A stretch of 64,000 nucleotides of DNA from Flavobacteriales bacterium. GTDB taxonomy: Bacteria; Bacteroidota; Bacteroidia; CAIKAF01. Made by a program: the position numbers and the translations under genes. This document shows positions 30,480 to 48,169 of this stretch, piece by piece (position 1 is the stretch's first letter; the number at the start of each line of letters is the position of its first letter). Under the pieces are notes generated by a model. It saw nothing but the letters and a program-made list of their open reading frames with translations, was not told the DNA's origin and searched no databases. The stretch is from the NCBI GenBank assembly GCA_025451235.1, contig JANWKT010000014.1:1-64000 (forward strand), in the 5' to 3' direction.

Positions 30480-30511
30480 AAATCCTCTGTTGTAAGGAAC
30501 AGGGGATTTTT
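30480..30511 (+). terminator. Rho-independent-like terminator
   Basis: AAATCCTCTGTT pairs with AACAGGGGATTTT and is followed by further T residues. It ends the second PKD gene and lies immediately outside the left boundary of the mobile element. Confidence 0.8.
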
Positions 30512-30520
30512 TTTGTGACG

Positions 30521-30538
30521 TTATTTCCCGATACAAAA
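30521..30538. repeat. Left attachment site (attL/attR direct repeat)
   Basis: This 18-bp sequence repeats the 3' end of mnmE with two mismatches and marks the distal boundary of the integrated element. Confidence 0.8.
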
Positions 30539-30575
30539 AGTGAAGCCCCTTGTAAATAAAGGGATTGGTAAATTT

Positions 30576-30600
30576 GAGGTACAAATATGGTACAAAATTC
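30576..30600. repeat. GAGGTACAAA repeats near left end (possible recombinase arm sites)
   Basis: GAGGTACAAA at 30576-30585 and GGTACAAAATTC at 30589-30600 recur near the opposite end of the element (47979-47992, 48009-48016, 48021-48031). GGTACAAAATTC is identical at 30589-30600 and 47981-47992. The position just inside each att site suits arm-type binding sites of the recombinase or excisionase. Confidence 0.5.
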
Positions 30601-31362
30601 TCATGACAGAGTCATCGAGGTTCTTTCTTTTGCGTGCAAAACTTTTCTTACTCCGTTAATGGTGCAATCTATTTCCAATGTTTTCTCCTTTCCAACGTAT
30701 GGGTCCCCCCCCATTAACTCATTGGATACATTGAATTCTAAAATACCTGCTTCAACAAGCTCTCGTATTTTTGGAGTCACGTTGAAGTAATTTTGTTCGC
30801 TGAAATATTTGGCGGAATGAATAGTAATAGAAGGTTGGTTCTTTTCCAGACTCTGTTTTAGCTCTTGTACCTTGTTTTCATGCAGATTTTTTTGTTGGGC
30901 CATTTCAATTTGTAAAGCGTGTAAATCTTCTTGATATTTCTTTAGTTGCCTTAGCCTATCATTTAAATCCCCTTCATAGTATTTTGCTTTAATTTGTGAC
31001 CTATACAAAATGATTACACTCATAGCGATTGTACTAAAACCTATAATAATAAGAACCAACCGAAGTGGATTTTTTTCTAAAAGGGTAATAAAATCTTCAT
31101 ACAACACACCGTAGCTAAGTATAGTCAATCCTAACACAATGTACAATATGCCTATAATTGACTTTTGCTTAAGTTTTTCGGGTCTTTCAATTTTAATTAA
31201 CCGAGCTATTTCATCAATATCAGCTGCTGTAATTTCAATCATATCATCGCCTGGAACAAACTTTCTATCCCGCAAATACTTTTCAATTTCGTCTTGCACT
31301 TTTACCTGCAATTTCTCTAATCGTTCTTTGGCACTCTGGGTATATATAAATTTTTTACTCAT
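30601..31362 (-). CDS. Two-TM protein with coiled coil and histone-fold-like N-terminus
   Basis: A 253-residue protein. Residues 1-65 are helical and end in EITAADIDEIARLIKI, resembling the helix 2-loop-helix 3 part of a histone fold (compare archaeal ...KTIKAEDIELAVRRF). Two transmembrane helices follow (about 68-88 and 98-118), then a coiled coil (about 130-180) and a C-terminal domain of about 75 residues. Its start overlaps the stop of the upstream gene as ATGA, so the two are translationally coupled. No known family was recognised; the histone-fold reading is an inference. Confidence 0.75.
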   Translation of the reverse strand: MSKKFIYTQSAKERLEKLQVKVQDEIEKYLRDRKFVPGDDMIEITAADIDEIARLIKIERPEKLKQKSIIGILYIVLGLTILSYGVLYEDFITLLEKNPLRLVLIIIGFSTIAMSVIILYRSQIKAKYYEGDLNDRLRQLKKYQEDLHALQIEMAQQKNLHENKVQELKQSLEKNQPSITIHSAKYFSEQNYFNVTPKIRELVEAGILEFNVSNELMGGDPYVGKEKTLEIDCTINGVRKVLHAKERTSMTLS

Positions 31363-31763
31363 GATTTAGATTTAACATTTTCAATATAAAACAGAATTAG
31401 ACCAATAACAAAGGATACCAATATACCGGTAAGAGCTCTTGTTGGATGTTTTTCCAAATAGGTTGTTGCCATGCCAATTGCAAATGTACAAACATATTGT
31501 CCTAACTTTACAAAGAGCATATATCCTGGAACCTTCGGTTTTCCATATGAATTAGCAATTGAATGCGCTGCAGCTTTAACATCATCATTGGTTACTTCCC
31601 TAATCTTCTCTTTAGATATATTACCATGAGCAATTGATTTTTCAAATAGCTCCTTTGAGTATTCTTTCACTGTTTTTGCAAATCTATCCTTGCCGAGTTG
31701 CGTAAAACCCGCATTTGTTAATTCTGGCTCGGATAGGTTAATTTCTGGCTCCTTTTCTTCCAT
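31359..31763 (-). CDS. Two-TM protein with histone-fold-like N-terminus
   Basis: A 134-residue protein. The soluble N-terminal 75 residues contain a long helix (RFAKTVKEYSKELFEKS), a loop and VTNDDVKAAAHSIANS, laid out like helices 2 and 3 of a histone fold. Two transmembrane helices follow (about 82-102 and 107-127), and the protein ends in KSKS. Its partner gene starts inside its stop codon (ATGA). The two proteins share helical layout and the (I/V)T-x-x-D-(I/V) motif, so they could pair through their N-termini at the membrane. Confidence 0.75.
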   Translation of the reverse strand: MEEKEPEINLSEPELTNAGFTQLGKDRFAKTVKEYSKELFEKSIAHGNISKEKIREVTNDDVKAAAHSIANSYGKPKVPGYMLFVKLGQYVCTFAIGMATTYLEKHPTRALTGILVSFVIGLILFYIENVKSKS

Positions 31764-31993
31764 GAAATCTATGTTTGGGGGTATTAGAACTTTTTGGTCA
31801 TAATAAAGATGAAGATTTCTTATTAATTATGCAAATCACTGTTCCATAAGTCATAGGATAATAAAGAGGGTCTGAAGGTACCCATGGCTCTCCCCCCCTT
31901 ACGTTTTGATTCGACTCTTCCCCCGCCTCTTTATGATTAGCTTTAATTCAACTAATAGTATTGATAACCTTTTTAGTGAATCAAAAAGAATTT

Positions 31994-32212
31994 ATGGATC
32001 CTAAATTAATCAAGCTAGGTAACTGCTCCTGTGGTCAATGTCTCAGTATGGATATGATGATATCTAAAACAGATCTCAAATGCCTCAATTGTAATAACGA
32101 ATACTACGTTCATATTGATCTTGAGGCAACTTTTACATTAGAGGAATGGGAACAGATGGAAGCAGCTCGAGAAAAAATTTCGGCAGAAGAACTAATTAAA
32201 CTTCCATTCTAG
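31994..32212 (+). CDS. Small zinc-ribbon-like protein
   Basis: The ATG at 31994 is chosen over an in-frame TTG at 31961. The 72-residue product has two cysteine pairs, C-S-C-G-Q-C near residue 10 and C-L-N-C near residue 28, consistent with a small zinc ribbon, and an acidic C-terminal helix (TLEEWEQMEAAREK). Function is unknown. It belongs to the mobile element and is followed 37 bp later by another small gene. Confidence 0.65.
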   Translation: MDPKLIKLGNCSCGQCLSMDMMISKTDLKCLNCNNEYYVHIDLEATFTLEEWEQMEAAREKISAEELIKLPF

Positions 32213-32249
32213 AGGGATATCATACCCTCTTTTTTTATCTAAAACAATT

Positions 32250-32540
32250 ATGGAAGTACAATTTAAAAAATGGCTTTGCCTGATCGAGTTTCGAGAATAC
32301 ATGAATGGTAGAACCGCGATACAGTTAGTTCATGCAGTTGATGGTGAGCCAATGTTGGTAGCAACGGTGAACCTCCCTGAAGATGAGTTAGAATCCGATG
32401 AAGTATTCATTAAAGATTGGTCAGAGAATTCAGGCGTGTATGACGTCTTAGTAGAAGCAGGAGTAATTAAAAAGTTTCATGGGTTTGTAAATCTGGGAGG
32501 TGTTAATGCTTATCGTTGTAAACTTTTAAGAAGGGAGTAA
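32250..32540 (+). CDS. Small element-borne protein of unknown function
   Basis: A 96-residue protein beginning MEVQFKKWLCLIEFREYMNG with a later VNLPEDELESDEVFIKDWSENSG stretch. I recall similar short proteins from phages and conjugative elements (a DUF4313-like pattern), but cannot confirm this. It has no membrane segment or catalytic motif. It likely travels with the upstream zinc-ribbon gene. Confidence 0.65.
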   Translation: MEVQFKKWLCLIEFREYMNGRTAIQLVHAVDGEPMLVATVNLPEDELESDEVFIKDWSENSGVYDVLVEAGVIKKFHGFVNLGGVNAYRCKLLRRE

Positions 32541-32554
32541 TCCTTTCTTTCTAT

Positions 32555-32622
32555 GGCGGCTGAATCGGGCTGTTCGTTAAAGTCCTCCTGGTAGTCCGGG
32601 CTATCACTTCTATCCCTGCCGC
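32555..32622 (-). repeat. Possible degenerate copy of the recurrent structured element
   Basis: GGCGGC (32555-32560) and GCCGC (32618-32622) bracket a foldable stretch that reads on the minus strand GCGGCAGGGATAGAAG... then ...AACAGCCCGATTCAGCC. This resembles the flanks of the elements at 13667, 20425 and 52632, but the ATATAGCGGA block is not conserved, so assignment is weak. It may also act as a terminator, since GCCGCTTTTT ends it on the plus strand. Confidence 0.35.
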
Positions 32623-32672
32623 TTTTTCCTTAATTCTATTTATATTTACTTATAACTGAATAACCAACTACC

Positions 32673-35600
32673 GTGAAAAAATGTTTTATTACAGATCTAG
32701 AAGTTGCAAATTATATTGAAGAGAAACAGATAGAATATGATCTCGTGATAAACGGGCATACTTTCCATTTGAAATTTGAACTCAATACAGACATAAGAAA
32801 GCGATTAAACGAATTTCAAAAGCATATTTGTACATGTATGCTATGGAACAATGATTGGCCGATTGATAATTATTTCAAAATTACTTATGAACTTATAGAT
32901 AGGTGTGTTACTCATATGGAGTATCCGAAGGACTTTGATGCTAGAGTTACCTATTTTATTAAGGAATTCTATCTGAATGGTGGAGCAGAACACAGAGAAA
33001 TTTCTGCAAGCACCGATGATTTTTATCGAAGTTTTGCAAAAGATAAAGATGAACATGGTAGAATTATTGACACTGCTATTCAAAATAATTGGATAGAAAA
33101 AAAAAGCCGCGATATCGGTCCTGAAATGTTGGTTATGTCCGCAGAAGGAAAATCTTACTGCCAATCTTTGCCTCAAATACAACAAAAAAAAGATGATTCA
33201 AGAGATAGACCCCTTGAAGGAATCAAAGTATTTTCGCTATATGTTTATGAGGATTTTGGTATTGGCGGTATTGTGCAGAATTTAGTACAAAAGTGGGGTG
33301 CTACATATGCTTCGTATGGACAGGGTATCAATAAAGAGTGGCATAACTATAATAATGCCCTCAGTGCTATGGAAGGTAGCAACATCGTTTTGCTAATTAA
33401 AACCGCTAATTCGGATAAGTATGGAGTTTGGCGGGATATTATAAATCGTCTTTCCTTTATTGAGGATCAAAACTCCCAGATACTTTATTACGTTGTCATG
33501 GGAGATGATAGCCCAGTTGACGATAATTCTCACATATATGATAAAAGATTAGGCCGATTAATTGATATACGTCTTATTCCAAATAGGAATAAAATACTTT
33601 TACCAAAGATTCAAGAAGTGGTTAATCCACCAATTGATGATGTTGAGAATGCTCCCGAAGAAGATTATTCCTCCCTAAAAATAATTAGTAGCAAAACGGA
33701 AAAAGAAATTGAGCAGAATCAATTCAATGGAGATCTTGCGATAAATAAAAAGGAACACGATAAATTCCAGCGCTATCCATTTGCGAACAGAATTTCAAAA
33801 ACTATTCTAGGCAGAACAGGTACAGACAACTTAACTATAGCGATTTATGGTTCCTGGGGTGAAGGTAAAACTTCAGTGCTAAATTTCATCAAGGGTGATT
33901 TAGATGAATATCTAAAAGCTTTTGTTGATAAGGAAAAGCACGAAAAACCTTTTGTGTACATTGATTTCAATCCTTGGCGATTTGATCAAGAGGATGCGTT
34001 GCTAATTTCCTTTTTCAATCAATTGGCAGTGGCTCTAGATGGCCCGCCAGGTAAAAGTATTTTTGGGCGAAGACTAGCACTCGATTCCAAAAGAGACAGT
34101 TTTGGAAAATTCATAAAAAAGTATGCTGATCATATTCCCTCAGTTCAAGGGATTCCTGTAGGATCAGTTGCAAAAGGGATTGGTGCTTTTTTAGGAAATG
34201 CGGAAGTTGATAATTACAAGGAGAAAATCAATGAGAAATTAATCAAGTCGAATAAAAAGATCGTCATTTTCATTGATGATATAGATCGACTGGATAAGAA
34301 GGAGATTCTTTCCTTATTCAGGTTAATAAAACTGACTGCGAACTTTTCGAATCTCATTTATATTATGGCGTTTGATGACGCTGTTATTGGTAAGGTACTT
34401 GGTGAAAGCTATGGCGAAATCGAAAATCCGGAAACTGGTAATGCCTTCTTAGAAAAAATTGTTCAAGTTCCTTTGCGCCTTCCAAGAGCACCAGAGAAAC
34501 ATTTGGAAAATTACTTTTTGGAGCTGCTGAAGACCGCGTTTGACTCAAATGGAATTAATTTTAATGAAGGGAATATTAGGGAGTTTCATAGATTACTCTT
34601 TCGAACAGCTTCCTTTAGATTGGAAACTCCAAGGTCAGCAATCAGGTATTCTAATGCAATATCTTTTTCATTACCCTTAGTAATAAACGAAGTTAATCTT
34701 TCGGATTTTCTCACCATTGAGGCTTTACGAGTCTTTTATCCTGATGTACACGCATTTGTTCGCCAAAATTCAAATTGGTTTATTGGTGGAGAGTATATGG
34801 GTACGGGTAGAGAAGCGGGTGATGATGTAAGAAAAAAGGAATTCGAAGAACTTTTCGGTCCGGTGTATAATACTTACGATGAAACCCAGAAGAAGATATT
34901 AAGATATATCCTAACGTTCCTGTTCCAAGGTCTAAAGCATACTTGGTATGGGGAGTATACTGTTCATCATAGCAGATCTCATAATCTGCAGAATAACAGA
35001 AGAATTTCATCAAAACATTATTTTGATAAGTACTTTACTTATTGTGTTCTAAATGATGATATTCCAGATGTGGCTATAAGCAATTTATTAGAAAAGATCA
35101 CAAAAGAAAATTCCACAGACAGTTCACAAATTGTTTCCGATTTCATTGATGCATATCATCCAGATGTATTCCTTCGTAAATTAAGGGCAAAGGAAAACGA
35201 ATTTACCGCTGATCAAGCGATTGCTATTGTAAAAACTCTAAGTTTTTTAGGCAGCAAGTTTGATATTCAAGAGTTCATAACATTCAGATTTACCGCTACT
35301 ATAATTCAGGCGGCTGAATTTATTGGAGGGTTAATTAAAAACAAGGTACTGGAATCTGACAGATATCTATTGTTAGAATGGGTTGTTGAAAGAGCTGAAC
35401 CTTTCTGGTTCTCATTCGAAATTTATATTGAATGTCATGGGAGGAAAAAAGGTGATCAGTCTAGGGAACGTATATTGTCGGATGAGCAGTTTGCCATACT
35501 TTTCCAAAAATTCATATCTAGGTTGGTTAACATTCATCCTGAAACTCCTTTATTCGTTTCGGATCCATCAGGCACTTTAGAAGTATTTAATCATTGGAAG

Positions 35601-35942
35601 AACGTAAATAAGCTGCAACTGAACGCATATGTTAAGCAATATATTGAAAAGGATGTATCGCTTGTTTTACCATTGGTGAAAATGTTTGCATCACACCAAA
35701 AAACACTTGGAGACGGAGGAAGTGAACGACCCTATCTTACAGATTTTGAAAAGAGGAACTATGATTACCTAGCGTTAGTGTTGGAAGCTGATTACGTGTA
35801 TAAAAAGGTACTTGAATTCTTAAAAAAACGGACAGATTATAAAGCTAAATTCACAGCGTTAAATCGTGACCAGACCGATGCGAATATTTTGGAACAATTT
35901 TTATTTCATCATCAAAATAATCCAAACGGTTCAGATCATTAA
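32673..35942 (+). CDS. KAP-family P-loop NTPase, multidomain
   Basis: A 1089-residue protein. Residues 1-100 match nothing recognised. About 100-170 looks like a winged helix (IIDTAIQNNWIEKK), and about 185-310 like a Rossmann-type alpha/beta domain beginning GIKVFSLYVYED. The KAP NTPase core follows: Walker A GSWGEGKTS at about 393-401, YIDFNPWRF, and Walker B IVIFIDDIDRLDKKE near 530-544. A long helical C-terminus runs to 1089. KAP NTPases include PifA, which excludes phage T7 from F-plasmid cells; the family usually has membrane helices inserted in the core, and none is obvious here. A defence role is inferred from family and location. Confidence 0.85.
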   Translation: MKKCFITDLEVANYIEEKQIEYDLVINGHTFHLKFELNTDIRKRLNEFQKHICTCMLWNNDWPIDNYFKITYELIDRCVTHMEYPKDFDARVTYFIKEFYLNGGAEHREISASTDDFYRSFAKDKDEHGRIIDTAIQNNWIEKKSRDIGPEMLVMSAEGKSYCQSLPQIQQKKDDSRDRPLEGIKVFSLYVYEDFGIGGIVQNLVQKWGATYASYGQGINKEWHNYNNALSAMEGSNIVLLIKTANSDKYGVWRDIINRLSFIEDQNSQILYYVVMGDDSPVDDNSHIYDKRLGRLIDIRLIPNRNKILLPKIQEVVNPPIDDVENAPEEDYSSLKIISSKTEKEIEQNQFNGDLAINKKEHDKFQRYPFANRISKTILGRTGTDNLTIAIYGSWGEGKTSVLNFIKGDLDEYLKAFVDKEKHEKPFVYIDFNPWRFDQEDALLISFFNQLAVALDGPPGKSIFGRRLALDSKRDSFGKFIKKYADHIPSVQGIPVGSVAKGIGAFLGNAEVDNYKEKINEKLIKSNKKIVIFIDDIDRLDKKEILSLFRLIKLTANFSNLIYIMAFDDAVIGKVLGESYGEIENPETGNAFLEKIVQVPLRLPRAPEKHLENYFLELLKTAFDSNGINFNEGNIREFHRLLFRTASFRLETPRSAIRYSNAISFSLPLVINEVNLSDFLTIEALRVFYPDVHAFVRQNSNWFIGGEYMGTGREAGDDVRKKEFEELFGPVYNTYDETQKKILRYILTFLFQGLKHTWYGEYTVHHSRSHNLQNNRRISSKHYFDKYFTYCVLNDDIPDVAISNLLEKITKENSTDSSQIVSDFIDAYHPDVFLRKLRAKENEFTADQAIAIVKTLSFLGSKFDIQEFITFRFTATIIQAAEFIGGLIKNKVLESDRYLLLEWVVERAEPFWFSFEIYIECHGRKKGDQSRERILSDEQFAILFQKFISRLVNIHPETPLFVSDPSGTLEVFNHWKNVNKLQLNAYVKQYIEKDVSLVLPLVKMFASHQKTLGDGGSERPYLTDFEKRNYDYLALVLEADYVYKKVLEFLKKRTDYKAKFTALNRDQTDANILEQFLFHHQNNPNGSDH

Positions 35943-35972
35943 AACAGGAAATAAGGAATTCACAATTCTTAA

Positions 35973-36086
35973 GTTGAACAATAACCCATGCCAGAACTTG
36001 GTAGAAAATACTGGTGTCTTTGTAGGGAAGTATATTCTACCAATCAAGTTGCTACGCAATTCTGTCATGGTTATTGTAGTCAACAA
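35973..36086. repeat. Long imperfect hairpin between convergent genes
   Basis: An inner stem pairs 35998-36012 with 36029-36043 (TTGGTAGAAAATACT against its complement, 14 of 15). An outer stem pairs GTTGAACAATAACCCATGCCAGAA (35973-35996) with the segment ending in GTTATTGTAGTCAAC (36060-36086). A small extra hairpin TTG-CTACG-CAA sits on the right arm. It lies in the 446-bp gap between the KAP and DUF4365 genes. The rest of that gap (about 36115-36300) is richer in GC than the neighbouring genes and has no convincing gene. Confidence 0.6.
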
Positions 36087-36388
36087 ATGAATTGTTCATA
36101 GTCGCTCTCAGTCTTTGATGTTATCCAAGCTGTTCGTAGCACTCTTCACTTCGTTACATCATGCGACTCACATCTCGGAAAACTCAAATCCTTTCGCGCC
36201 TCACTATTTTGCTCGCCTGCGCCTCGCAACAGGCTGCGCTCCTGTCATGATTTTTTCTATTGCTTCTGAGTACTTTCCAAAAATCCCGCCAGGAGCTTGT
36301 GTTTACAACATAGTCAGCACCTCTATAAATAGCTTTACTGCTGACACCTGTTGCTCAACTCGCAGACGGCGAGCCGGTAATTCTGGGT

Positions 36389-38218
36389 TTATCGTTTCTT
36401 CTCCATAAAGTACGCGGTAAATCTGTCATTAAGTACTTTATATAAATATTTCTGCATTGGGATTCCTTCCCATAAATAATCAAAACCGGTGCCGGTCATT
36501 GAGGTTACCTTATACTCAATTTGATCAATTGTAACACCATCTTTAAAATAGCTTCCTGGTGCACGATCAGCGAATGGATTTATTGTATCACCTTCAAAGA
36601 AAACATTTAATTCCGGAGCCATTTTTCCTTGAGTAAGTTTTTTTAGATAGTATACCTCGAAGGAGGGTGACCCATCACCTGATCTGAAAGCATGAATTGC
36701 AATTTTATCTGCTCCTTTAAAATAGTTTAGTTCATTAATTAAATGTGGGAAGGCTGCATTAATAAATTCCGTATAGATCCGGTGAAAATTGTTAAAGAAT
36801 GATGATACCGTTTTTTTATATTCCTCCGGTGGGAAATATTCCCAAAAGTAACAGGCGGTTTTGTTAGGCCTGACCTTAATACCATAGCACCTTTCGATGT
36901 GATCAGTCTTATTTTGCCTCTTATATTGCAAGCAATTTTTCAAATATGAAAGATTGTAGTCCCTGCTTTTGATCCTGATTTTAAAGTTAGGGACTATCCC
37001 TACCCCAATTTTCGTCCTTACATTTGCTGCCCCTTTCTCCAATTCTTCTGGATAATTATGCATGCGGAATGAATTAATATCTATAAGTCGGTTGTCGTAC
37101 ATGTTTTCAAATCCTTCCATTTCTTCTATAAACATTGGAAGAAACTTTGTTAGTGCCTGTTCAACTTCGGACACGGAATAACTATCGCGGTTTTTTTCTA
37201 AACCAAGAATTACATAATGATCATCTATAAATTGAACTATATACTCATTAGCCAGAAAATTATTTGTGTAAGTTATTGTCTTGTTTGTCAGTGCCGATTT
37301 CACACATTCTCCGATCAGTTCATATGCATACTTTTCTGGATAATATTTTATCGGATTTTGGCCATAGTGCGCTCTAAATTCAATTCCGTCATTCTCTATT
37401 TTTTTTCGGTTCTGTTCTGTGACACGTTTTATCTGAACATCATTAATTGTATACTTAATTGGATAGAAAATATAATGTAACTCAGTATCCGTATAATCTT
37501 CGTATGCCAAGCCTATTTTCCAGAAATCAGGATACAAGAGGTTTTTTATTGTTCTGAATTCATGATCAAGTAGGTAATTGTACTTGTCCAAAAAATCATG
37601 GATATCCTTATAAATTTCTTCCTCTGTGCCTAATTCTGGCAACGCATATTCTGATAGTTTGGAAATTATACCATTGGCAGCTCTCAGGTTTTCAGAAACC
37701 TGATCAAAATCTGAAATTTTACTCTTTTGTTTATCGTGAATTTCTTTCCAAAGAGCAATATAGTCTTTGTGAGTTTCTGAAATGATATTGGTCTTAGGAA
37801 TATGGAGTGCAACTGAATCTTTCTTTATTTTTTTAGATAGCCGTATTAGGCATTCTTTGCTTATATATTCCCAATAAGCTTGCTTAGCTTTTACATCAAC
37901 TGCAATTAGTAAAACCGGTATAATACTCCCTTCACAGGATGCGAGAAACGGGAGATCACATTGGTGAGAAACATAATCTTTCTTTGGGTCTACTTTTGAT
38001 GCTGTTTTCAATTGTACTCGAATAATTGCAACAGGAGAGTCATCGTTATCCGTTAATTCAACAAAACCATCAGTATTGGGCACTTTGTCAAGAAAGTTGA
38101 CATCTGGCTTGACAAACTTATTATCTACAATACTGAGGAAACAGGAAACAGCCGCTAACTCTTCTGCATTGTTGTTAGGATAAGGTGCTGGTTTTGCGTT
38201 GATGATTTTTTCACTCAT
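36389..38218 (-). CDS. DUF4365 (PD-(D/E)XK nuclease-like) protein
   Basis: Starting at the ATG at 38218 (MSEKIINAKP), whose first bases overlap the stop of the upstream gene as ATGA, the product has 609 residues. The N-terminal 140 residues match the DUF4365 pattern: Glu20 in the first helix, NTDGFVEL with Asp50, and VQLKT with Gln69-x-Lys71. This spacing is that of a PD-(D/E)XK nuclease core in which the (D/E)xK is QxK. The remaining 470 residues are alpha/beta and unassigned. DUF4365 domains are common in defence loci. The protein is the downstream partner of a proteasome-like hydrolase. Confidence 0.8.
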   Translation of the reverse strand: MSEKIINAKPAPYPNNNAEELAAVSCFLSIVDNKFVKPDVNFLDKVPNTDGFVELTDNDDSPVAIIRVQLKTASKVDPKKDYVSHQCDLPFLASCEGSIIPVLLIAVDVKAKQAYWEYISKECLIRLSKKIKKDSVALHIPKTNIISETHKDYIALWKEIHDKQKSKISDFDQVSENLRAANGIISKLSEYALPELGTEEEIYKDIHDFLDKYNYLLDHEFRTIKNLLYPDFWKIGLAYEDYTDTELHYIFYPIKYTINDVQIKRVTEQNRKKIENDGIEFRAHYGQNPIKYYPEKYAYELIGECVKSALTNKTITYTNNFLANEYIVQFIDDHYVILGLEKNRDSYSVSEVEQALTKFLPMFIEEMEGFENMYDNRLIDINSFRMHNYPEELEKGAANVRTKIGVGIVPNFKIRIKSRDYNLSYLKNCLQYKRQNKTDHIERCYGIKVRPNKTACYFWEYFPPEEYKKTVSSFFNNFHRIYTEFINAAFPHLINELNYFKGADKIAIHAFRSGDGSPSFEVYYLKKLTQGKMAPELNVFFEGDTINPFADRAPGSYFKDGVTIDQIEYKVTSMTGTGFDYLWEGIPMQKYLYKVLNDRFTAYFMEKKR

Positions 38219-39003
38219 TTTTTTCGGATTACTTCTATATCCCATGGTGCACCTACAATTTTAACACTCGCCCAGTTGTCATATATTACCGAAATATAGG
38301 TTAACATATGTCGGTACATTTTTTTTATTTCTGCATCTGATTTTCTTTGCGGAGCGGTAAAACCTGGAAAGGTGAATATTTGACGAAACGAATGCATGTG
38401 GGAGTCCCAAACTGCACCGTGTACTATTATGTGTCCGTTTCTGTATACAGGGTTTTGATCAGTAGTATATTTAAATGAATTTGGATTGGATCCGTCCCAC
38501 CCATATTTCACGGCATCTCTGTTAAGAAAATCGTGAAATGGTTCTTTGAATTGATCTTTCATATTATAATATGAAGCAGTAAGTGGATCATAATCGCAAT
38601 TGGAGAAATGAATAAATTCTGGAACGCCATCGGCACGTATTCCTGCAAGGTGAAATCCTGAAGGTTCATTAACCAAATATTGTTTATACGTTCTCAGGTT
38701 TATTTCATCACGTAATCTATTTGCAAAATCCATTAAACTTGGTGCAGAGTGTTGATGCCGGATAAAATTCGGCAGCCATGTACACAGTAATTCACCACCG
38801 CCCTTGGCATTCTGGACATTTGCTAAACCCCAAAATGAAACTGTTGCATTAAGATATTCTATCCTGAATAATTTTTTACCTTTTGGATATTTTTTTTTGG
38901 GATTTTTTTCAGCGCCGATTGTCAGTCTGTTGTCTGCATATGAAATTATAACCGGATCATCTGTACCTTTATCTAAATAAATCTCGTTGGCAATTAGAGT
39001 CAT
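38215..39003 (-). CDS. Proteasome/HslV-like Ntn-hydrolase, candidate
   Basis: The ATG at 39003 gives MTLIANEIYL; removal of Met by methionine aminopeptidase would expose Thr1. Counting from it, Asp23-x-Arg25-x-Thr27 (ADNRLTIG) lines up with Asp17-x-Arg19-x-Thr21 of proteasome beta subunits after a six-residue insertion, and Lys42/Lys43 of GKKLFRI with Lys33. The following FWGLANVQ corresponds to the F-x-G strand. Thr1, Asp17 and Lys33 are the catalytic set of the proteasome/HslV family, so a 262-residue N-terminal nucleophile hydrolase is likely. HslU/ClpX-type ATPases are not adjacent. The start codon of the DUF4365 partner overlaps its stop, so the two are made together. Confidence 0.75.
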   Translation of the reverse strand: MTLIANEIYLDKGTDDPVIISYADNRLTIGAEKNPKKKYPKGKKLFRIEYLNATVSFWGLANVQNAKGGGELLCTWLPNFIRHQHSAPSLMDFANRLRDEINLRTYKQYLVNEPSGFHLAGIRADGVPEFIHFSNCDYDPLTASYYNMKDQFKEPFHDFLNRDAVKYGWDGSNPNSFKYTTDQNPVYRNGHIIVHGAVWDSHMHSFRQIFTFPGFTAPQRKSDAEIKKMYRHMLTYISVIYDNWASVKIVGAPWDIEVIRKK

Positions 39004-39224
39004 ACATTTTTTGTTTGAGTGGTTATCGAGGTGTAACAAAGTTATCCAAAAAAGCTGTATATTTGGAGCGTTGTTAAATATGTTCTTCTATACTTAAAGA
39101 TGTTGATCCTCAAGGGTCTGTTATGAGTGACTGTATCACTCTCTGTTAATAATGTTAGATGGCTATATCAGCCTGCCGGCAAGAGCTGGATTATATTAAG
39201 ATTTACTAATTTAATCATTCTGGT

Positions 39225-39362
39225 ATGAATGAATTATTCATGTGGATTGTATGCTGCACGGCTGTGGCAGGATCCACTCAGGTTGTGGTAAAGGTTAATG
39301 TGCAAATTACCTCCAGGAAGAAGAATAAAACTGGGAAGAAGCGCAGAAAGAAACTGAAATAA
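39225..39362 (+). CDS. 45-residue small protein, hydrophobic N-terminus and very basic tail
   Basis: An ATG at 39225 opens a 45-codon frame. The first 20 residues are hydrophobic (MNELFMWIVCCTAVAG), while the last 16 are almost all Lys, Arg and Asn (RKKNKTGKKRRKKLK). A strong terminator follows within 25 bp, which supports a real transcript. The make-up resembles a membrane-active peptide or a type I toxin, but no family was recognised. It stands between the divergent Ntn-hydrolase and PIN genes. Confidence 0.5.
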   Translation: MNELFMWIVCCTAVAGSTQVVVKVNVQITSRKKNKTGKKRRKKLK

Positions 39363-39385
39363 GCATAGTGCAAAAGCACAAAAAG

Positions 39386-39413
39386 ACCTGTAAGGAAACT
39401 TACAGGTTTTTTA
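39386..39413 (+). terminator. Rho-independent terminator
   Basis: ACCTGTAAG and CTTACAGGT form a perfect 9-bp stem with a GAAA loop and are followed by TTTTTATT. It follows the 45-codon frame at 39225-39362. Confidence 0.85.
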
Positions 39414-39606
39414 TTATAAAGAGTAAAGAGAGGAGTTAACACCCAGTACTGATGGAGGTCTACAATCGTTACTACTAAGAACATGGAGTTAATTGAATTA
39501 TTCTTACTTTTTTGGTATTTTGATACCCTTAACTTGCCGGAAAATCTGGCAAATACTTTTTTAAGTTTATAGATTTAAGTCAGCAACTTTAACCAACTTT
39601 CTTAAT

Positions 39607-40590
39607 ATGCTCGTTTACCTGGACTGGAATATATTTAGTAATATTAGAAATATAGGATCATCACACATGTCGTCGGAGGACAATCTTCTTTTCATGAAAC
39701 TTCATCTGATGATCCTGAAAAAAACTATTCGTGTTCCTTATTCTAATGCTCACATTAATGATCTATTGAGAGGACATGCTAAGAACCAAAACTATACTGA
39801 AGGAGATCTTGAGATAATAAAGAGGTTGACCAATAATCTTTGTCTTACTCAGTATTGGAAGGAATCGGATGCGAGATGGCATTATAGAGATCCTAATGAA
39901 TTTTTCTTTACGGCTTTAGATGACATCAACAGTATGCCGGATAAGTCATATACTGAGTTATTGAGCACAGAGGGATTGCCGGATATGACCTTCTACTATG
40001 AGATGATGCGAAAAGCAGCATTGCCGTCAGGATTTTCAGCTTTATATAAACAGGATCCTATTTTCTCTAAGATATATCCGAGATCAAAGGTCTCACCCAA
40101 TATGTTGTCTCTCTGCGAGGATATATATGAGTTGACCAAAGCGATGAAAAAGGATTACCGGATTTATAAAGAACTTAAAATCTACATTGCCAAAATGAAG
40201 GCAAAAATGGGTAAGCAGGCTGCGGTAATAAACAAATTGGTTAAAGAGGATCAAACTCCTAAACAATTAACATGGAATGATGTATGGGAATCTACAGTAG
40301 CTGATGCTCAAAATAAAAATAAAATAAGTGAGAACCCGGTTTATCAAAAGATAACCGATACTTATGTTCGCATTAATTTTCAAGGGCACAAATCTGATGA
40401 GGTCTTTACCAATATGATTGATGATTCAATGCATGTATTTTATGGAGCACATTGTAACTATTTTGTTACACTTGACGATAGATGCCATTACAAGGCAGTA
40501 GAAACATATAAGAAGTTGGGTATAACTACTCAGGCACTGAAACCGAAGGATTTTCTTGATGAGATGAAAGCAAAAGGAATGATCTTTTAG
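39607..40590 (+). CDS. PIN-like domain protein 1
   Basis: A 327-residue protein starting MLVYLDWNIFSNI, which places an acidic residue (Asp6) at the end of the first strand as in PIN nucleases. The C-terminal part has the matching acidic motifs: Asp272/Asp273 before HVFYGAHCNYFVT and Asp290/Asp291 after it (TLDDR). This is the Asp...Asp...(T/S)xDxR layout of PIN domains with a helical insert of about 200 residues between. PIN domains are metal-dependent RNases. A second PIN-like gene follows 67 bp downstream. Confidence 0.78.
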   Translation: MLVYLDWNIFSNIRNIGSSHMSSEDNLLFMKLHLMILKKTIRVPYSNAHINDLLRGHAKNQNYTEGDLEIIKRLTNNLCLTQYWKESDARWHYRDPNEFFFTALDDINSMPDKSYTELLSTEGLPDMTFYYEMMRKAALPSGFSALYKQDPIFSKIYPRSKVSPNMLSLCEDIYELTKAMKKDYRIYKELKIYIAKMKAKMGKQAAVINKLVKEDQTPKQLTWNDVWESTVADAQNKNKISENPVYQKITDTYVRINFQGHKSDEVFTNMIDDSMHVFYGAHCNYFVTLDDRCHYKAVETYKKLGITTQALKPKDFLDEMKAKGMIF

Positions 40591-40657
40591 CTAAAAATGA
40601 AACATTTTTCACTATTTTACGTATACATAGAGTCACAAATTTTACCTGCAGTATAGT

Positions 40658-42007
40658 ATGCCAATTAATATCGTTCTTGATAAATCAGCTTTTCAATCAT
40701 TCAATCACAATGAGCTCATCCTGCTCAATGGCTATTACCGCCATAACGTTACTCAAATCTTAAGTTTTGAAATAATAGGTGATCTTTCCAAAGAGGCTAA
40801 GGAAGGGAAAAAACCACCAGCAGAACAAGTTAAAATGTTAGCCTACAGATTATTTCCAGGAGATAATTTGATCAATGTACCATGTCATTTACTACCTGAA
40901 CAAGAACTCCTAGGTAAAAGGGTTCCAATGGACGGAAAACCTATTATTGAATTGGAGAGGTATGTGGATCTGCCAGATGGCAACAAAGCAGTTCAACTTA
41001 AAGAAACTTTACTTGAGGTTGCAATTAGTAATTGGAAAAAAGGTGAATTCGTTGACCTGGATTTTGCAAACTCAGCCTCTTGGAGGGATCGTACTACAAA
41101 TGCTGATCTTTTGGCTCAAGCTAAAGCACTATTAGGAGCATTTCCGTTTCTTAATAATCTCAAATCAATGGATGAGGTAAATGCATTTGTAGAAAAATTT
41201 ATAGCTGATGAACAACAACAGGAGGCCATCTTAATGGGGGCAATTAAAAAATACGTGCACCATGAAGCCGAAAAATATAATGTGGTTCAAAGATGGTTTG
41301 CTACAGGTCGCCCAATGCTATCAGATTTTGCCCCTTATACGCTGTATTGTGTGAAGGTTGAAATGTTGTTTCAACTGGGAATATTGAATGAGCATATAGG
41401 AAATCGACCTACTAACCGATTGGATCTTCAATATCTTTATTACCTGCCCTTTTGTGATCTATTCTGTGCAAATGATAAGTTTTTTGACACCATGATTCCT
41501 TACTTGGTAAAAACCCCGGATCAGTATGTAAAAGGATCCATTTTAAAGGAAGATCTAAAACAGGCTTGGGTCAACATACATAACATGTCAGAGGAAGAAC
41601 GTAAACCTTTTTATAGAAAACCAATCGTAGATGAAAATTCATTTACGTTTAAACTTTGGAACAAGTATTTCGACTATCCGGATAACCCAACTTTTTCTCA
41701 TACTATGAGTGAAGAAGAAATGAAGGAGATGAGGCAAAATATGGAAGCATTTGAACAGAGCCTAAAATCCAACGGGAACGTCGGAATCAAAGGAGATGCT
41801 GATTTGATTGGGAGGGTAAGTTATTTAAGTAAGGATGATCCTTGTTTCATCTGTAACAGTGGGAAAAAACTAATCGAATGTTGCATGACTGAAGAGAAAT
41901 TTGACGCGACCTTAAAAATGCAGGCTCAGGATTATGGTAACAACTCGGATGGAATTATGGTTGCACATCAGGAGTATAAAGGAAAAGATACCAATCCAGA
42001 ATCGTAG
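40658..42007 (+). CDS. PIN-like protein 2 with C-terminal SEC-C-like zinc motif
   Basis: A 449-residue protein starting MPINIVLDKSAF (Asp8 after the first strand). A later motif, LPFCDLFCANDKFFD around residues 264-277, has the conserved acidic residues Asp267 and Asp273, again PIN-like. Near the end CFICNSGKKLIECC (Cys396-x2-Cys399-x8-Cys408-Cys409) resembles the SEC-C zinc motif (usually CxCGSGKKxKxCC), widened by one residue. SEC-C motifs bind zinc and can contact nucleic acid or ribosomes. It is in tandem with the preceding PIN-like gene, so the two probably act together. Confidence 0.75.
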   Translation: MPINIVLDKSAFQSFNHNELILLNGYYRHNVTQILSFEIIGDLSKEAKEGKKPPAEQVKMLAYRLFPGDNLINVPCHLLPEQELLGKRVPMDGKPIIELERYVDLPDGNKAVQLKETLLEVAISNWKKGEFVDLDFANSASWRDRTTNADLLAQAKALLGAFPFLNNLKSMDEVNAFVEKFIADEQQQEAILMGAIKKYVHHEAEKYNVVQRWFATGRPMLSDFAPYTLYCVKVEMLFQLGILNEHIGNRPTNRLDLQYLYYLPFCDLFCANDKFFDTMIPYLVKTPDQYVKGSILKEDLKQAWVNIHNMSEEERKPFYRKPIVDENSFTFKLWNKYFDYPDNPTFSHTMSEEEMKEMRQNMEAFEQSLKSNGNVGIKGDADLIGRVSYLSKDDPCFICNSGKKLIECCMTEEKFDATLKMQAQDYGNNSDGIMVAHQEYKGKDTNPES

Positions 42008-42170
42008 TTTCCGGTTTTCCACATCTTAGTAATTAGAAACAGGAAACGAGAAAGAAGGAAAGGATATAGCTCAAGAGCTCTTTGGCATGTATTCCTTACA
42101 GGACAAAATTTAACGGATCAATACATATATATATCACTATACATCGCTTAAGCAAATGTCTGACTGACAC

Positions 42171-42209
42171 GCTGAATTTTTTTTAGCTCTGATGGCTAAA
42201 AAATTCAGC
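42171..42209. terminator. Bidirectional terminator hairpin
   Basis: GCTGAATTTTTTTTAGC and GCTAAAAAATTCAGC pair across a short loop, giving an A/T tract on each side, between convergent genes. The rest of the 310-bp gap 42008-42317 holds one copy of GAAACAGGAAAC at 42036-42047 and nothing else recognised. Confidence 0.75.
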
Positions 42210-42317
42210 TTTCATATCGTTTCCAATTCATCATTGGTTATAATCGAAAAATAAATTAATAAAATTTATTTAATTCTATAAATTAATTTCATTTTTCTCT
42301 ATAAGAGAATGAATTGT

Positions 42318-42578
42318 TTATTTGAATGCTGCATCATATCCCCAACAGAAGCATTCTTTATTTTCATTACCTAAGTAACCTGGTTGTCTCTGTACAGCTT
42401 CAAAAACCTTATCACATGGTATCTTTGCTAATCGGGATTTCACCCGCTGTTGACCATGATAATATCCCTGGTTATAGTATTTTTCTTGGTCCAGATTACG
42501 GCATTTATCTTTTTGACCACCGCAACTGGCCAGGAATGTTAAAGTAGCTACCAGAGTGATCGGAATCTTTCTTTTCAT
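42318..42578 (-). CDS. Small lipoprotein of unknown function
   Basis: An 86-residue protein with a lipoprotein signal peptide (LTFLASC, Cys18 as the lipid site). The mature part has four further cysteines (KDKCRNL, KIPCDKV, KECFCWGYD), probably disulfide-bonded. It is 14 bp downstream of another lipoprotein gene on the same strand, so both may be one unit. No family was recognised. Confidence 0.7.
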   Translation of the reverse strand: MKRKIPITLVATLTFLASCGGQKDKCRNLDQEKYYNQGYYHGQQRVKSRLAKIPCDKVFEAVQRQPGYLGNENKECFCWGYDAAFK

Positions 42579-42592
42579 AAAACGATAGTCAT

Positions 42593-43159
42593 TTAAAGTG
42601 GGAAATCTTCGAAATAAATTTTCAGCTCACGTACATCTGAATAAACAGATGCATTTCGAACATGCCCTTCATAATGTCCGGAAATTAGATTTACGTTTAC
42701 ATTAGTAATTACAAAAGTATTGGTCAATGTTGAATCATAATTGAACATTAAACTATTGCCGTTGATAAGCCCGCCAAATGGATTTAAAGCAAACTCTTTG
42801 ATCCCAGATGGGTTTGTACTGTAGGAAGGATTATATGCTCCTATAACGGAAACATATGTGCCGGGCTGAGGATTCAAGGAACCATATGAAAACACATGTA
42901 TTCCTGCATTGAAACTATTATTAGGATCTGTGGCAGTTGCCGGATGATAAAATGAAACCGCCATATAGTTGTAGGCAACACCGTAATTACTGGTGTCATA
43001 TGTTGCTGAAATATTGCAGTCGGATAAACTTAACGGATATGTATTCCCATCAAAGCAGACCATATTACCTGAAGGACTGCTGCAGCTAGCAGGAGGTGGT
43101 GGGAGACAAGAATTTGCAACTAACAATGTCAGACTCAGAGTAACAGCTAACTTATTCAT
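42593..43159 (-). CDS. Lipoprotein of unknown function
   Basis: The 188-residue protein has a signal peptide ending in VANSC (Cys18) followed by a proline-rich linker. The mature part is Ser-, Asn- and Tyr-rich and predicted to be all-beta. It is cotranscribed with the 86-residue lipoprotein gene. A surface protein of the integrated element is likely; function unknown. Confidence 0.7.
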   Translation of the reverse strand: MNKLAVTLSLTLLVANSCLPPPPASCSSPSGNMVCFDGNTYPLSLSDCNISATYDTSNYGVAYNYMAVSFYHPATATDPNNSFNAGIHVFSYGSLNPQPGTYVSVIGAYNPSYSTNPSGIKEFALNPFGGLINGNSLMFNYDSTLTNTFVITNVNVNLISGHYEGHVRNASVYSDVRELKIYFEDFPL

Positions 43160-43185
43160 CCTATAGAAAAAACATGCTATACTCA

Positions 43186-43351
43186 GCCCTTCTATAGCGG
43201 GTTATAAAAACAACACGGGCTGACAAGCTAGTCTACCGTAAGCGAGGTGGTTGCACACCCTTATACAAATAGAAAAAGCTCCGCCCGTGCTTAACGCACA
43301 GACATCTGCTTCTTCCTTGTATAATTTGAAAATTTGCAACCTTTCGCTTAC
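43186..43351. ncRNA. Candidate structured RNA or cruciform region
   Basis: CACGGGC (43214-43220) pairs with GCCCGTG (43283-43289). A second inverted pair, GTAAGCGAGGTGGTTGC (43238-43254) with GCAACCTTTCGCTTAC (43336-43351), crosses the first, so together they would form a pseudoknot-like layout. TATAGCGGGTTATAA precedes it. The 390-bp gap 43160-43549 contains no convincing gene. It could be a small RNA, a recombination site or a replication/transfer origin; the sequence alone does not decide. Confidence 0.4.
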
Positions 43352-43549
43352 AAGAAAATGCTTCTGCTGTCTAATATTTTACATGATAAAAATAAGCTTT
43401 ATTCAGCAGTATCCAAAACGACCGAGTACCTGTATTTCATTAGGTTTCAACACATAATACTCCCAGGACTCCGATGAAGTGCTGGAAGTATTTCTATTCA
43501 TATTGTTCATTTTATTACAGTCTTACCTTTAGGGAATATATGGCAGGAT

Positions 43550-43801
43550 CTATTCTTGCACTTCGATTTGTTGAATATAGGTGCAACCGTGCTCTAAAGC
43601 TTCAAACAGATGAACCTGGAATATTCTATTCAGTTGATCCATAACATTTCCATTCATGATCCTTCGGAGTTCATCATTAGGATCTTGAATTCTTATTTTG
43701 GATTTTTCGCATTCCCAAACTTTGCTACATACCTCTACCAAGACAAATTCCTGATCAGTCAATCTATCATTATCGGATTCAATTACTTTAATTTTTAGCA
43801 T
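43550..43801 (-). CDS. Small protein of unknown function
   Basis: An 83-residue acidic protein (pattern MLKIKVIESDNDRLTDQEF, then FQVHLFEALEHGC), without membrane segments or known motifs. It lies 81 bp downstream of the RepA-like gene on the same strand, separated from it by an inverted repeat at 43829-43869. It may be a regulator of the element's replication genes, by position only. Confidence 0.55.
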   Translation of the reverse strand: MLKIKVIESDNDRLTDQEFVLVEVCSKVWECEKSKIRIQDPNDELRRIMNGNVMDQLNRIFQVHLFEALEHGCTYIQQIEVQE

Positions 43802-43828
43802 AATGCATTTTTTATGGTTAATAATTGC

Positions 43829-43869
43829 GTTTCCTGTTTCTATTTACTTAGGCCTGAGAAACAGGAAAC
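43829..43869. repeat. Inverted repeat of GAAACAGGAAAC
   Basis: GTTTCCTGTTTC (43829-43840) and GAAACAGGAAAC (43858-43869) are perfect 12-bp complements separated by 17 bp. The same 12-mer occurs at 42036-42047 and at 38138-38149 (inside the DUF4365 gene). Binding sites for the element's HTH or RepA-like protein are possible; the pair may also be a terminator of the RepA-like gene. Confidence 0.5.
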
Positions 43870-43882
43870 ATTTAATGTGGAA

Positions 43883-44878
43883 CTATAATTTGAAAAATTC
43901 ATCTGGGTCTTCTTCTTCCGATTCCTGGTCCCAACCTCGTTCTTTGGCTTTATCAAAGAGTTTGGTAATACTACCTTTACTTTTAAACCCAATTTCATTC
44001 GCTATTTCATCATAATTCTTACCTTGCTTTTTCAGCATATTAGCGATATCAAATTTCTCCCGATCCCTATCTATCCCAGGACCTTTTACCAAAAGTTCAA
44101 ATGGAACTCTTTTGCCCGTATCACTAAATGTTAACGTTACCTCATCCAGCCGAAGCATAATACTTTTCTGTTTATCTGATGAACTAAGATAATTACCCTT
44201 AACAATACAGAGATGGCGAAGATTTGCATCACTATTATCCATTCTAAACTCCATTACCAACCTCATCTTCGCCTCAAACGCTTGGCTGCCCAATAGATGA
44301 TTTTTACTTGGAGTAATATATTCCGTTCGTTTCCCGGTGTGGTGTAGGAATAGAATCAAACACTGATGCCTTAAAGCCAAATTATGAAATGATTGCAACC
44401 ATTGTCTAACACTAGTAGAGTCATTTAGCTTTCCGTTGAAAAGGTCCCCAAAACAATCGATAACTACCAGATCCGTTTTTTTATCATGTAACTTTTTTTC
44501 CAGCGATTGCAATAGATTTTCGGAGTAAAAAATGAACTCCAATTCTTCAAGGAGATCCGGGCTACACGACTGAGCCTGTTTTTTAAGATATTTCTTTGTT
44601 TCGGATTCTAAGTCTTCAGTGATAACACAAAGAGCTCTATGGTGCTCGGCATTTATTCTGCGTCCCAAAAATTCTTTCTGTTTTGTTACAATTGCAATTG
44701 CAAACTGTCTAAGAAAAAGACTTTTGCCGGTATCACTTGATCCAGCAATACAGGCCAAGCCAACTTTTTGCATCATCCCTTCAACTAAAAACATTGTTTT
44801 CTCAGATGGCTCTTCCATCAATTGTTTACCTGTTTTTGTTACATCTGGAAATTTAATCTGATTTTTATTAGTTCCCAT
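43883..44878 (-). CDS. RepA-like AAA/RecA-fold ATPase
   Basis: A 331-residue protein with Walker A GSSDTGKS at residues 46-53, a Walker B-like DLVVIDCFGDLF, and LILFLHHTGKR, all typical of the hexameric RepA/DnaB-type helicase family found in plasmids and integrative elements. The C-terminal 60 residues contain a putative HTH (KNYDEIANEIGFKSKGSITKL). It probably serves replication or maintenance of the excised element. It overlaps the upstream small gene by 11 bp, and the HTH gene precedes that one. Confidence 0.85.
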   Translation of the reverse strand: MGTNKNQIKFPDVTKTGKQLMEEPSEKTMFLVEGMMQKVGLACIAGSSDTGKSLFLRQFAIAIVTKQKEFLGRRINAEHHRALCVITEDLESETKKYLKKQAQSCSPDLLEELEFIFYSENLLQSLEKKLHDKKTDLVVIDCFGDLFNGKLNDSTSVRQWLQSFHNLALRHQCLILFLHHTGKRTEYITPSKNHLLGSQAFEAKMRLVMEFRMDNSDANLRHLCIVKGNYLSSSDKQKSIMLRLDEVTLTFSDTGKRVPFELLVKGPGIDRDREKFDIANMLKKQGKNYDEIANEIGFKSKGSITKLFDKAKERGWDQESEEEDPDEFFKL

Positions 44879-45403: not shown

Positions 45404-45454
45404 TTTTTGCTGTATTTAAATTTACACAGCAAACATCGGATAGTGAAGGCGGTT

Positions 45455-45474: not shown

Positions 45475-45483
45475 TAATCTGGC

Positions 45484-46203: not shown

Positions 46204-46219
46204 GTTGTCAATTTAAGAA

Positions 46220-47353
46220 TTATATATCCAAATGTATTAGGTCAGCAGCTTTACGTTTAGTTGGATTAATTACTTTAGCATAAACCTGAGTAGTTCTTAT
46301 ATTTTTATGGTCCAATAATTTCGAAACCGTATATAGGTCTGATCCCAAACTCAATTGAATAGTAGCATAGGTGTGTCTCAATCCATGAAAATTAATATCT
46401 CTAACACCAGCTTTGGCAAGCCATATATGAAAATGATAATATCGATCTCTATTGTTTAAACCAATAAAAACTTTGTCTGCAGGCTGTTGACGTTCACCAA
46501 GCAATGTAAATGCTTGTTTAGAAATTGGCAAATAATTATTACCGCCAGTTTTTTGTCTTTTATGAGGTATATAATATCCATATTCGTTTGAATGATGTAC
46601 CTCACCCCAGGTTAGATTTTGAATCTCCTTAAATGCCATTCCTGTAAGAGCGGAAAATAATGCTGCTCTTTTTAGCAGTGGATTAGGGCAATCAGTATTG
46701 GCTAATATGTTTAGCTCCTCTAATGTAAGAAATTGAATCTCTGTTTCTGCAGGCTTGACTGATTTAATCTTCGCATTCAGATCAGTTTGCAAATATCCAT
46801 CTTTATATGCCTGCTTTAGCGCAGCCTTTAATTTGTTGAAATAAGATACTGCTGAATTTTGTGAAAGCGAAACTTTAGTACTCTTGTTGCTTTTAGTAGT
46901 TAATAAATACTCCTTGAATCCTTCACAGAACCTTTCATCTAGATCAATAAATTTCAATTTCCCACCAGTGTATTTTTCTAGGTAGTGTGATGCTGAGATC
47001 CAGTTATCATGATTAGAAGCTTGTCGTTTTTCTGCCAATTGATTAAAATAATCTATGAAGGATAATTCACCTCTTTCTCTGATTAATAATTGAGCCTTTT
47101 CATAACCGGTATAAATTTCCGGTTTATTTACTTGGTTATCTTTTTTCTGACGGATTTGCTCCGCAAGTATTTCCGTTTCTTTATTATGCTGTTTGTCGAT
47201 AGGAGTCTTAGGTTTATCAAATGTATATAATCCTAAAAATTCCCTACGTGTTGATATCCCAGTTTTGGGATTTGGTATTGCCGGGTAAAAGTCTAAATAA
47301 TAACTGTGTCTATCACCCGAAATTGCTTTTGATCTTAACTTTACTTTTATCAT
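46220..47353 (-). CDS. Tyrosine recombinase (integrase) of the IntDOT-like group
   Basis: A 377-residue site-specific recombinase with an N-terminal SAM-like core-binding domain (about 100-200) and a catalytic domain. The second catalytic motif is HGLRHTYA, the third His is in LLDHKNIRTTQ, and the nucleophile is the Tyr of QVYAKV. The first catalytic Arg box reads TGMAFKEI, so Ala stands where Arg is usual; IntDOT of CTnDOT is also known to lack this Arg. It would act on the 18-bp att repeats. Its start overlaps the stop of the excisionase-like gene (ATGA). Confidence 0.93.
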   Translation of the reverse strand: MIKVKLRSKAISGDRHSYYLDFYPAIPNPKTGISTRREFLGLYTFDKPKTPIDKQHNKETEILAEQIRQKKDNQVNKPEIYTGYEKAQLLIRERGELSFIDYFNQLAEKRQASNHDNWISASHYLEKYTGGKLKFIDLDERFCEGFKEYLLTTKSNKSTKVSLSQNSAVSYFNKLKAALKQAYKDGYLQTDLNAKIKSVKPAETEIQFLTLEELNILANTDCPNPLLKRAALFSALTGMAFKEIQNLTWGEVHHSNEYGYYIPHKRQKTGGNNYLPISKQAFTLLGERQQPADKVFIGLNNRDRYYHFHIWLAKAGVRDINFHGLRHTYATIQLSLGSDLYTVSKLLDHKNIRTTQVYAKVINPTKRKAADLIHLDI

Positions 47354-48031: not shown

Positions 48032-48151
48032 GCAGCAAAAAGATCAGATAAAAACCAAGAAGAAAGTTTTTAATAATTATCATGTACCACCTGTGAATAC
48101 TGGTGATATGGGTGTTTATTATACGTTTGTTATTTGTTTGTTTTGTGATGC

Positions 48152-48169
48152 TTACTTTCCGATACAAAA
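48152..48169. repeat. Right attachment site at the 3' end of mnmE
   Basis: The 18 bp encoding the last residues and stop codon of mnmE form the direct-repeat partner of 30521-30538. The coding sequence is restored by the repeat, so mnmE stays functional. Confidence 0.8.

What the first reader, a model, noticed from the sequence alone, without database searches (positions are those of the whole stretch)
36389..39003. Coupled proteasome-like Ntn-hydrolase and DUF4365 nuclease-like protein: candidate new defence module
The upstream gene encodes a protein that begins Met-Thr and keeps the counterparts of proteasome/HslV Thr1, Asp17, Arg19 and Lys33. The downstream gene starts inside its stop codon (ATGA) and carries an E...D...QxK pattern as in DUF4365/PD-(D/E)XK nucleases. 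Both lie in a mobile element with other probable defence genes. I do not know of a described system that joins a stand-alone proteasome-fold hydrolase with a nuclease-like protein. One could act as sensor or activating protease of the other. Seen: motifs and overlap. Inferred: joint function and defence.
Basis: partly seen in the sequence, partly recalled or inferred. Interest (0 to 1): 0.85.

Follow-up and report, generated by a model that had tools for sequence, protein, structure and literature searches.

The report
Proteasome-like and nuclease-like gene pair
A mobile DNA island in a Bacteroidota-like bacterium carries two overlapping genes, one for a distant relative of proteasome subunits and one for a likely DNA-cutting (DUF4365) protein; both genes are real, but their relatives elsewhere are not found side by side, so the idea that they form a new defence system is unproven.

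Summary
Window 38215-39003(-) encodes a 262-aa protein starting Met-Thr, and 36389-38218(-) a 609-aa protein starting within the first gene's stop (ATGA). The second is a real DUF4365 protein (PF14280, E 8.5e-9). Its D50/Q69/K71 match the proven catalytic residues D41/Q60/K62 of a SPARDA nuclease, with identical spacing, and persist in a 37%-identical homologue. The first matches no family library. One remote homologue (26% identity; Smith-Waterman 102 versus shuffled 33±5) keeps Thr, Asp, Lys and Gly, and its N-terminus fits HslV better than any of 235 control ORFs. A proteasome-like Ntn fold is therefore likely but unproven: AlphaFold without homologues failed (pLDDT 36), and 'Arg19' is not conserved.

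The coupling is not supported as a recurring module. The only full-length homologue of the nuclease-like protein stands alone in a conjugative element, the only homologue of the Ntn-like protein has no DUF4365 neighbour, and none of 16 other DUF4365 loci has an Ntn-like neighbour. Both genes are cargo of a ~17.7-kb island at the 3' end of mnmE. Best reading: a co-transcribed pair made of a DUF4365 nuclease-type effector and a divergent Ntn hydrolase, with a functional link possible only in this lineage.

The parts
38215..39003 (-). Gene 1 (262 aa): probable stand-alone proteasome-like Ntn hydrolase beginning Met-Thr (T2, D24, K44, G59 as Thr1/Asp17/Lys33/Gly47 counterparts)
   Evidence: no Pfam, PADLOC, NCBIfam or PHROG match
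36389..38218 (-). Gene 2 (609 aa): DUF4365 (DREN-type PD-(D/E)XK) domain at aa ~1-155 plus ~450 aa of unknown C-terminal region
   Evidence: PF14280 E 8.5e-9; D50/Q69/K71 equal to DREN D41/Q60/K62; full-length homologue
38215..38218 (-). ATGA overlap of gene 1 stop and gene 2 start
   Evidence: sequence
39037..39044 (-). TAACTTTG, matches the Bacteroidota -7 promoter consensus TAnnTTTG; the only such box in the 603 nt upstream of gene 1; consensus only
   Evidence: consensus from general knowledge
30511..30538 (.). Left end (att copy) of the island; keeps the mnmE 3' codons FCIGK-stop
   Evidence: 24 of 29 positions match the right copy with one 1-nt gap (counted by hand)
48141..48169 (.). Right end (att copy) in the 3' end of mnmE
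46220..47353 (-). Tyrosine recombinase (integrase) of the island
   Evidence: PF13102 1.5e-19, PF00589 3.3e-18
43883..44878 (-). AAA_25 (RepA/KaiC-like) ATPase of the island
   Evidence: PF13481 6.1e-20
32673..35942 (+). KAP-family P-loop NTPase, PifA-like; neighbouring candidate defence gene, opposite strand
   Evidence: PF07693 1.1e-43, PADLOC PifA 3.9e-72

Best explanation
The two genes are one small transcription unit among the cargo of a ~17.7-kb integrase-bearing island inserted at the 3' end of mnmE. Gene 2 encodes a DUF4365/DREN-type PD-(D/E)XK protein: an N-terminal metal-dependent nuclease domain (D50, Q69, K71) joined to a ~450-aa C-terminal region that probably senses a signal or controls assembly, so that the nuclease degrades DNA when an invader is detected. 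Gene 1 encodes a divergent stand-alone proteasome-like Ntn protein whose Thr2 becomes the N-terminal nucleophile after the initiator Met is removed, with no propeptide. It is co-translated with gene 2 and in this lineage probably acts as an accessory, for example by processing or holding in check gene 2 or a phage protein. Shown: frames, overlap, DUF4365 family match, conserved catalytic-type residues, island. Inferred: Ntn fold, enzymatic activities, defence role, and any physical or functional link. The pairing is local, not a recurrent module.
For: PF14280 hit over the cut-off for gene 2 and for its 37%-identical homologue. D50-Q69-x-K71 has the same 19-residue spacing as the proven D41-Q60-x-K62 of DREN, and the two-sequence profile's top PDB match is DREN-APAZ in that register (E 0.1, weak). 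Gene 1 has a homologue with T, D, K and G kept, start-anchored to HslV at ranks 1 and 4 of 237. ATGA overlap, an isolated minus-strand unit between plus-strand genes, and a promoter-like box. Island ends, integrase and lower GC, 35.4% against 40.6%.
Against: No adjacency of the two families elsewhere. Structure prediction failed for both proteins, gene 1 matches no proteasome model, and local profile scores against HslV are within background. No experimental or genetic evidence of defence.
Confidence: 0.45

Rival explanations
1. Independent cargo: the genes are packed tightly on a mobile island but work separately. Gene 2 is a single-gene DUF4365 nuclease-type defence or exclusion protein, and gene 1 is an unrelated proteasome-like protein.
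For: Gene 2's only full-length homologue is a single gene next to a TraG/relaxase region in a conjugative element, and that genome shows no gene-1 relative. Gene 1's only homologue has no DUF4365 neighbour. 16 other DUF4365 loci have no Ntn-like neighbour.
Against: A 4-nt overlap in a discrete two-gene unit between genes on the other strand usually reflects co-expression. Only one homologue of each could be found, so absence of linkage rests on very few cases.
Confidence: 0.4
2. Genuine new two-component defence system: the Ntn protease senses infection or is inhibited by it, cleaves or releases the DUF4365 nuclease, and the nuclease degrades DNA and aborts infection.
For: Overlapping genes, both with catalytic residues intact, in an island next to a PifA-like KAP NTPase and other unassigned gene pairs. 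DUF4365 nucleases are proven effectors in SPARDA.
Against: No recurring adjacency, no activity data, no fold confirmation.
Confidence: 0.2
3. Gene 1 is not an Ntn hydrolase: the Thr/Asp/Lys/Gly pattern is a coincidence in a family with another fold.
For: No family or PDB match. The motif alone occurs in 1 of 235 controls, local HslV scores are within background, and Arg19 is not conserved.
Against: The remote homologue keeps exactly T, D, K and G with HslV spacing at the N-terminus and ranks first of 237 in the anchored test; the segment GFHLAGIRADGVPEFIHFS resembles proteasome strands.
Confidence: 0.15

Closest known systems
Proteasome-like family of Fuchs, Alva and Lupas 2021 (HslV, Anbu, BPH, connectase, PMI, WPH, FC and others; PMC8665760)
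   Same: Stand-alone, no propeptide, Met-Thr start, Thr/Asp/Lys/Gly catalytic pattern, narrow scattered distribution, extra inserted length (262 aa against 176 in HslV)
   Different: No detectable match to PF00227 or to HslV beyond the N-terminus; subgroup could not be assigned. That paper reports no genomic context suggesting a function; here the gene overlaps a DUF4365 gene.
SPARDA DREN-APAZ / TmuRE (DUF4365 nuclease with short Argonaute; PMC12205087, PMC10810196)
   Same: DUF4365 domain at the N-terminus with identical D-Q-x-K spacing, followed by a large C-terminal region; on a mobile, defence-like island
   Different: No match to APAZ over aa 155-609, no Argonaute partner; partner gene is Ntn-like
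HslV / HslVU
   Same: N-terminal Met-Thr, Asp at +16 in the homologue, Lys and Gly positions
   Different: No HslU or other unfoldase next to it; extra ~90 aa; own genome has no PF00227 protein at all

Membership tests
Proteasome-like Ntn hydrolases | Thr immediately after the initiator Met (or after a propeptide) | tested here: met
   MTLI; kept in the homologue MTLV
Proteasome-like Ntn hydrolases | Asp17, Lys33 and Gly47 counterparts conserved | tested here: met
   D24, K44 and G59 invariant in the two known members; only two sequences
   R26 here but Ala in the homologue (GDSAV)
Proteasome-like Ntn hydrolases | Alpha-beta-beta-alpha sandwich fold | tested here: inconclusive
   AlphaFold from the single sequence pLDDT 36; Foldseek on it has no significant match
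Proteasome-like Ntn hydrolases | Match to the Pfam Proteasome model PF00227 | tested here: not met
   no hit up to E 10; HslV control hits at 2e-25. Fuchs et al. note that many of the new subfamilies show only low similarity to known homologues
Proteasome-like Ntn hydrolases | Threonine-dependent hydrolase or ligase activity | not testable with these tools
   -
DUF4365 / DREN PD-(D/E)XK nucleases | Match to PF14280 above the curated cut-off | tested here: met
   36 bits against 24.3
DUF4365 / DREN PD-(D/E)XK nucleases | Catalytic Asp, Gln-x-Lys | tested here: met
   D50, Q69, K71, invariant in homologue; spacing as D41/Q60/K62 of DREN
DUF4365 / DREN PD-(D/E)XK nucleases | Nuclease activity | not testable with these tools
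   -
SPARDA (short Argonaute system) | APAZ domain fused to DUF4365 | tested here: not met
   PADLOC and PDB matches cover only aa 49-130 and 49-122; remote APAZ similarity below sequence detection cannot be excluded
SPARDA (short Argonaute system) | Short Argonaute gene adjacent | tested here: not met
   neighbouring genes are Ntn-like, KAP NTPase and PIN-like
Candidate two-gene Ntn + DUF4365 defence system | Recurring adjacency in unrelated genomes | tested here: not met
   0 of 1 gene-2 homologue, 0 of 1 gene-1 homologue, 0 of 16 other DUF4365 loci; small sample, one phylum
Candidate two-gene Ntn + DUF4365 defence system | Location on a mobile element with defence genes | tested here: met
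   integrase, att copies, PifA-like KAP NTPase

The most novel reading that the evidence does not exclude
A proteasome-like threonine hydrolase and a DUF4365 nuclease form a two-protein immune unit in which proteolysis and DNA degradation control each other, which would be the first function tied to an orphan proteasome homologue.
Probability: 0.2. Interest if true: 0.8.

Novelty: new member of a known kind. Interest (0 to 1): 0.42.

Why it matters
Fuchs et al. (PMC8665760) described 22 orphan groups of proteasome homologues and found no genomic context hinting at function. A proteasome-like gene overlapping a nuclease-effector-type gene on a mobile island would be such a context and could be tested directly. 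That promise depends on finding the pair again elsewhere, which this survey did not.

Tried and rejected
Searches for relatives of gene 1 in plasmids, phages and viral contigs found nothing usable, and likewise for its homologue and for gene 2. The Pedobacter hit L002 is spurious: 44 aa with an internal stop. The match in G127 lies over unrelated genes (a peptidase and a glycine-cleavage-type protein) and carries stops. Weak class hits L010-L014 are short and low-scoring and were not pursued. Hits L035-L043 mostly match only the tail of the homologue, not the Ntn part. AlphaFold on single sequences gave pLDDT 36 and 32. A Foldseek run on the poor model listed several proteasome chains with E of 2 or more, which is not evidence. 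Profile comparison with HslV: E 0.038, but background proteins score as well. SPARDA membership rejected: no APAZ match and no Argonaute. Literature searches found no described pairing.

Full report
Observation. On the minus strand, 38215-39003 encodes a 262-aa protein (MTLIANEIYL...) and 36389-38218 a 609-aa protein whose ATG overlaps the TGA of the first (ATGA). The longer upstream starts (TTG at 39039 for gene 1, ATG at 38245 for gene 2) are not favoured: both known members of each family begin at the ATG used here.

Gene 2. PF14280 (DUF4365) is matched above its cut-off at aa 49-154, and PADLOC gives the REase part of a short-Argonaute partner. A search of 390 genomes of the phylum found one full-length homologue (G206, 36% identity, E 2.5e-115). 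Alignment of the two keeps E20, D50, E54, Q69 and K71. In the SPARDA DREN domain the catalytic residues are D41, Q60 and K62, and mutation of each abolishes or impairs activity (PMC12205087); TmuRE uses Q62/K64 (PMC10810196). The spacing D-19-Q-2-K is the same in gene 2, and a profile of the two sequences has DREN-APAZ as its first PDB match in exactly this register, although at E 0.1. DUF4365 has been assigned to the Mrr-like PD-(D/E)XK group (PMC6299218). So a nuclease-type domain is well supported. The remaining ~450 aa matched nothing; there is no APAZ signal.

Gene 1. No match in Pfam, PADLOC, NCBIfam or PHROGs. One homologue was found (L003:919-1896, genome G200): BLASTP E 2e-8 for the pair, Smith-Waterman 102 against a shuffled mean of 33 with SD 5. 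It reads MTLVVSDISKHGVIMVGDSAVT..., with the Thr-Asp distance of HslV (16). T2, D24, K44, W58, G59 and A61 are invariant between the two. Without gaps, residues 2-24 of the homologue score higher against six HslV sequences than any of 235 control ORFs of the window's contig, and with start-anchored alignment the homologue ranks 1st and gene 1 4th of 237. Against this, a pattern test alone is met by 1 of 235 controls, local profile scores are within background, and the predicted structure is unusable. I put the Ntn fold at about 0.85. It would be one more orphan proteasome-like protein of the type surveyed by Fuchs et al. 2021 (PMC8665760), where new subfamilies lack propeptides, are scattered, and have no informative gene context. 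The window's genome has no PF00227 protein at all.

Coupling. G206 carries its gene-2 homologue directly after a TraG-like/relaxase region, without an Ntn gene, and the phylum search with gene 1 found no match there. The gene-1 homologue lies among unrelated genes, without DUF4365. Among 295 genomes of the class, 16 other DUF4365 loci had no ORF resembling gene 1 or its homologue in the ~1.5 kb held on either side. Both families are rare: roughly 2 carriers each in about 400 to 1,000 overlapping genome draws. What remains in favour of a link is the ATGA overlap, the isolated two-gene unit on the minus strand between plus-strand genes, and a lone TAACTTTG box 34-41 nt upstream of the start.

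Setting. The genes lie in an island of about 17.7 kb (30511-48169). Its two ends carry near-copies (24 of 29 positions) of the mnmE 3' end, both still encoding FCIGK-stop. It has a tyrosine recombinase, two HTH_17 proteins and an AAA_25 ATPase, and GC of 35.4% against 40.6% outside. Other cargo: a KAP NTPase matching the PifA model (3.9e-72), a PIN-like/SEC-C-tailed pair, and a small membrane pair with its own ATGA overlap. PKD/Por-secretion proteins and mnmE lie outside.

Conclusion. The sequence reading of the first stage was good. The new-module claim is not established: gene 2 is a member of a known nuclease kind, gene 1 a probable member of a known but uncharacterised kind, and their joint function is an open hypothesis (about 0.2 as a true two-component defence system).

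Noticed in passing
30511-30538 and 48141-48169: Island ends: both copies keep the last codons of mnmE (FCIGK-stop) with synonymous differences, so the element integrates in and restores the mnmE 3' end.
   Followed up: yes
32673-35942 (+): KAP P-loop NTPase matching the PADLOC PifA model (3.9e-72) with a ~350-aa N-terminal extension of unknown kind.
   Followed up: partly
30601-31362 and 31359-31763 (-): Two small membrane/coiled-coil proteins, also overlapping by 4 nt; the larger has a weak SLATT-like match (E 0.001).
   Followed up: partly
39607-40590 and 40658-42007 (+): Adjacent genes without family; the first starts like a PIN domain, the second ends in a SEC-C-like CFICNSGKKLIECC motif.
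   Followed up: no
42007-42048 and 43828-43869: 42-nt inverted repeat (81%) enclosing two small secreted or lipoprotein-like genes inside the island.
   Followed up: no
36115-36388 (-): Degraded coding remnant just downstream of gene 2, ending ...IEKIMTGAQPVARRRRAK.
   Followed up: partly
L003:919-1100; L035-L044: The C-terminal tail of the gene-1 homologue is repeated in several genomes of its class, which suggests a cassette or insertion junction.
   Followed up: no
L020: In another genome a long DUF4365 protein is preceded by a different small gene (MMITRTFQPIGQGAFYTEKH...), possibly a metallo-hydrolase, hinting that DUF4365 proteins have varied partners.
   Followed up: no
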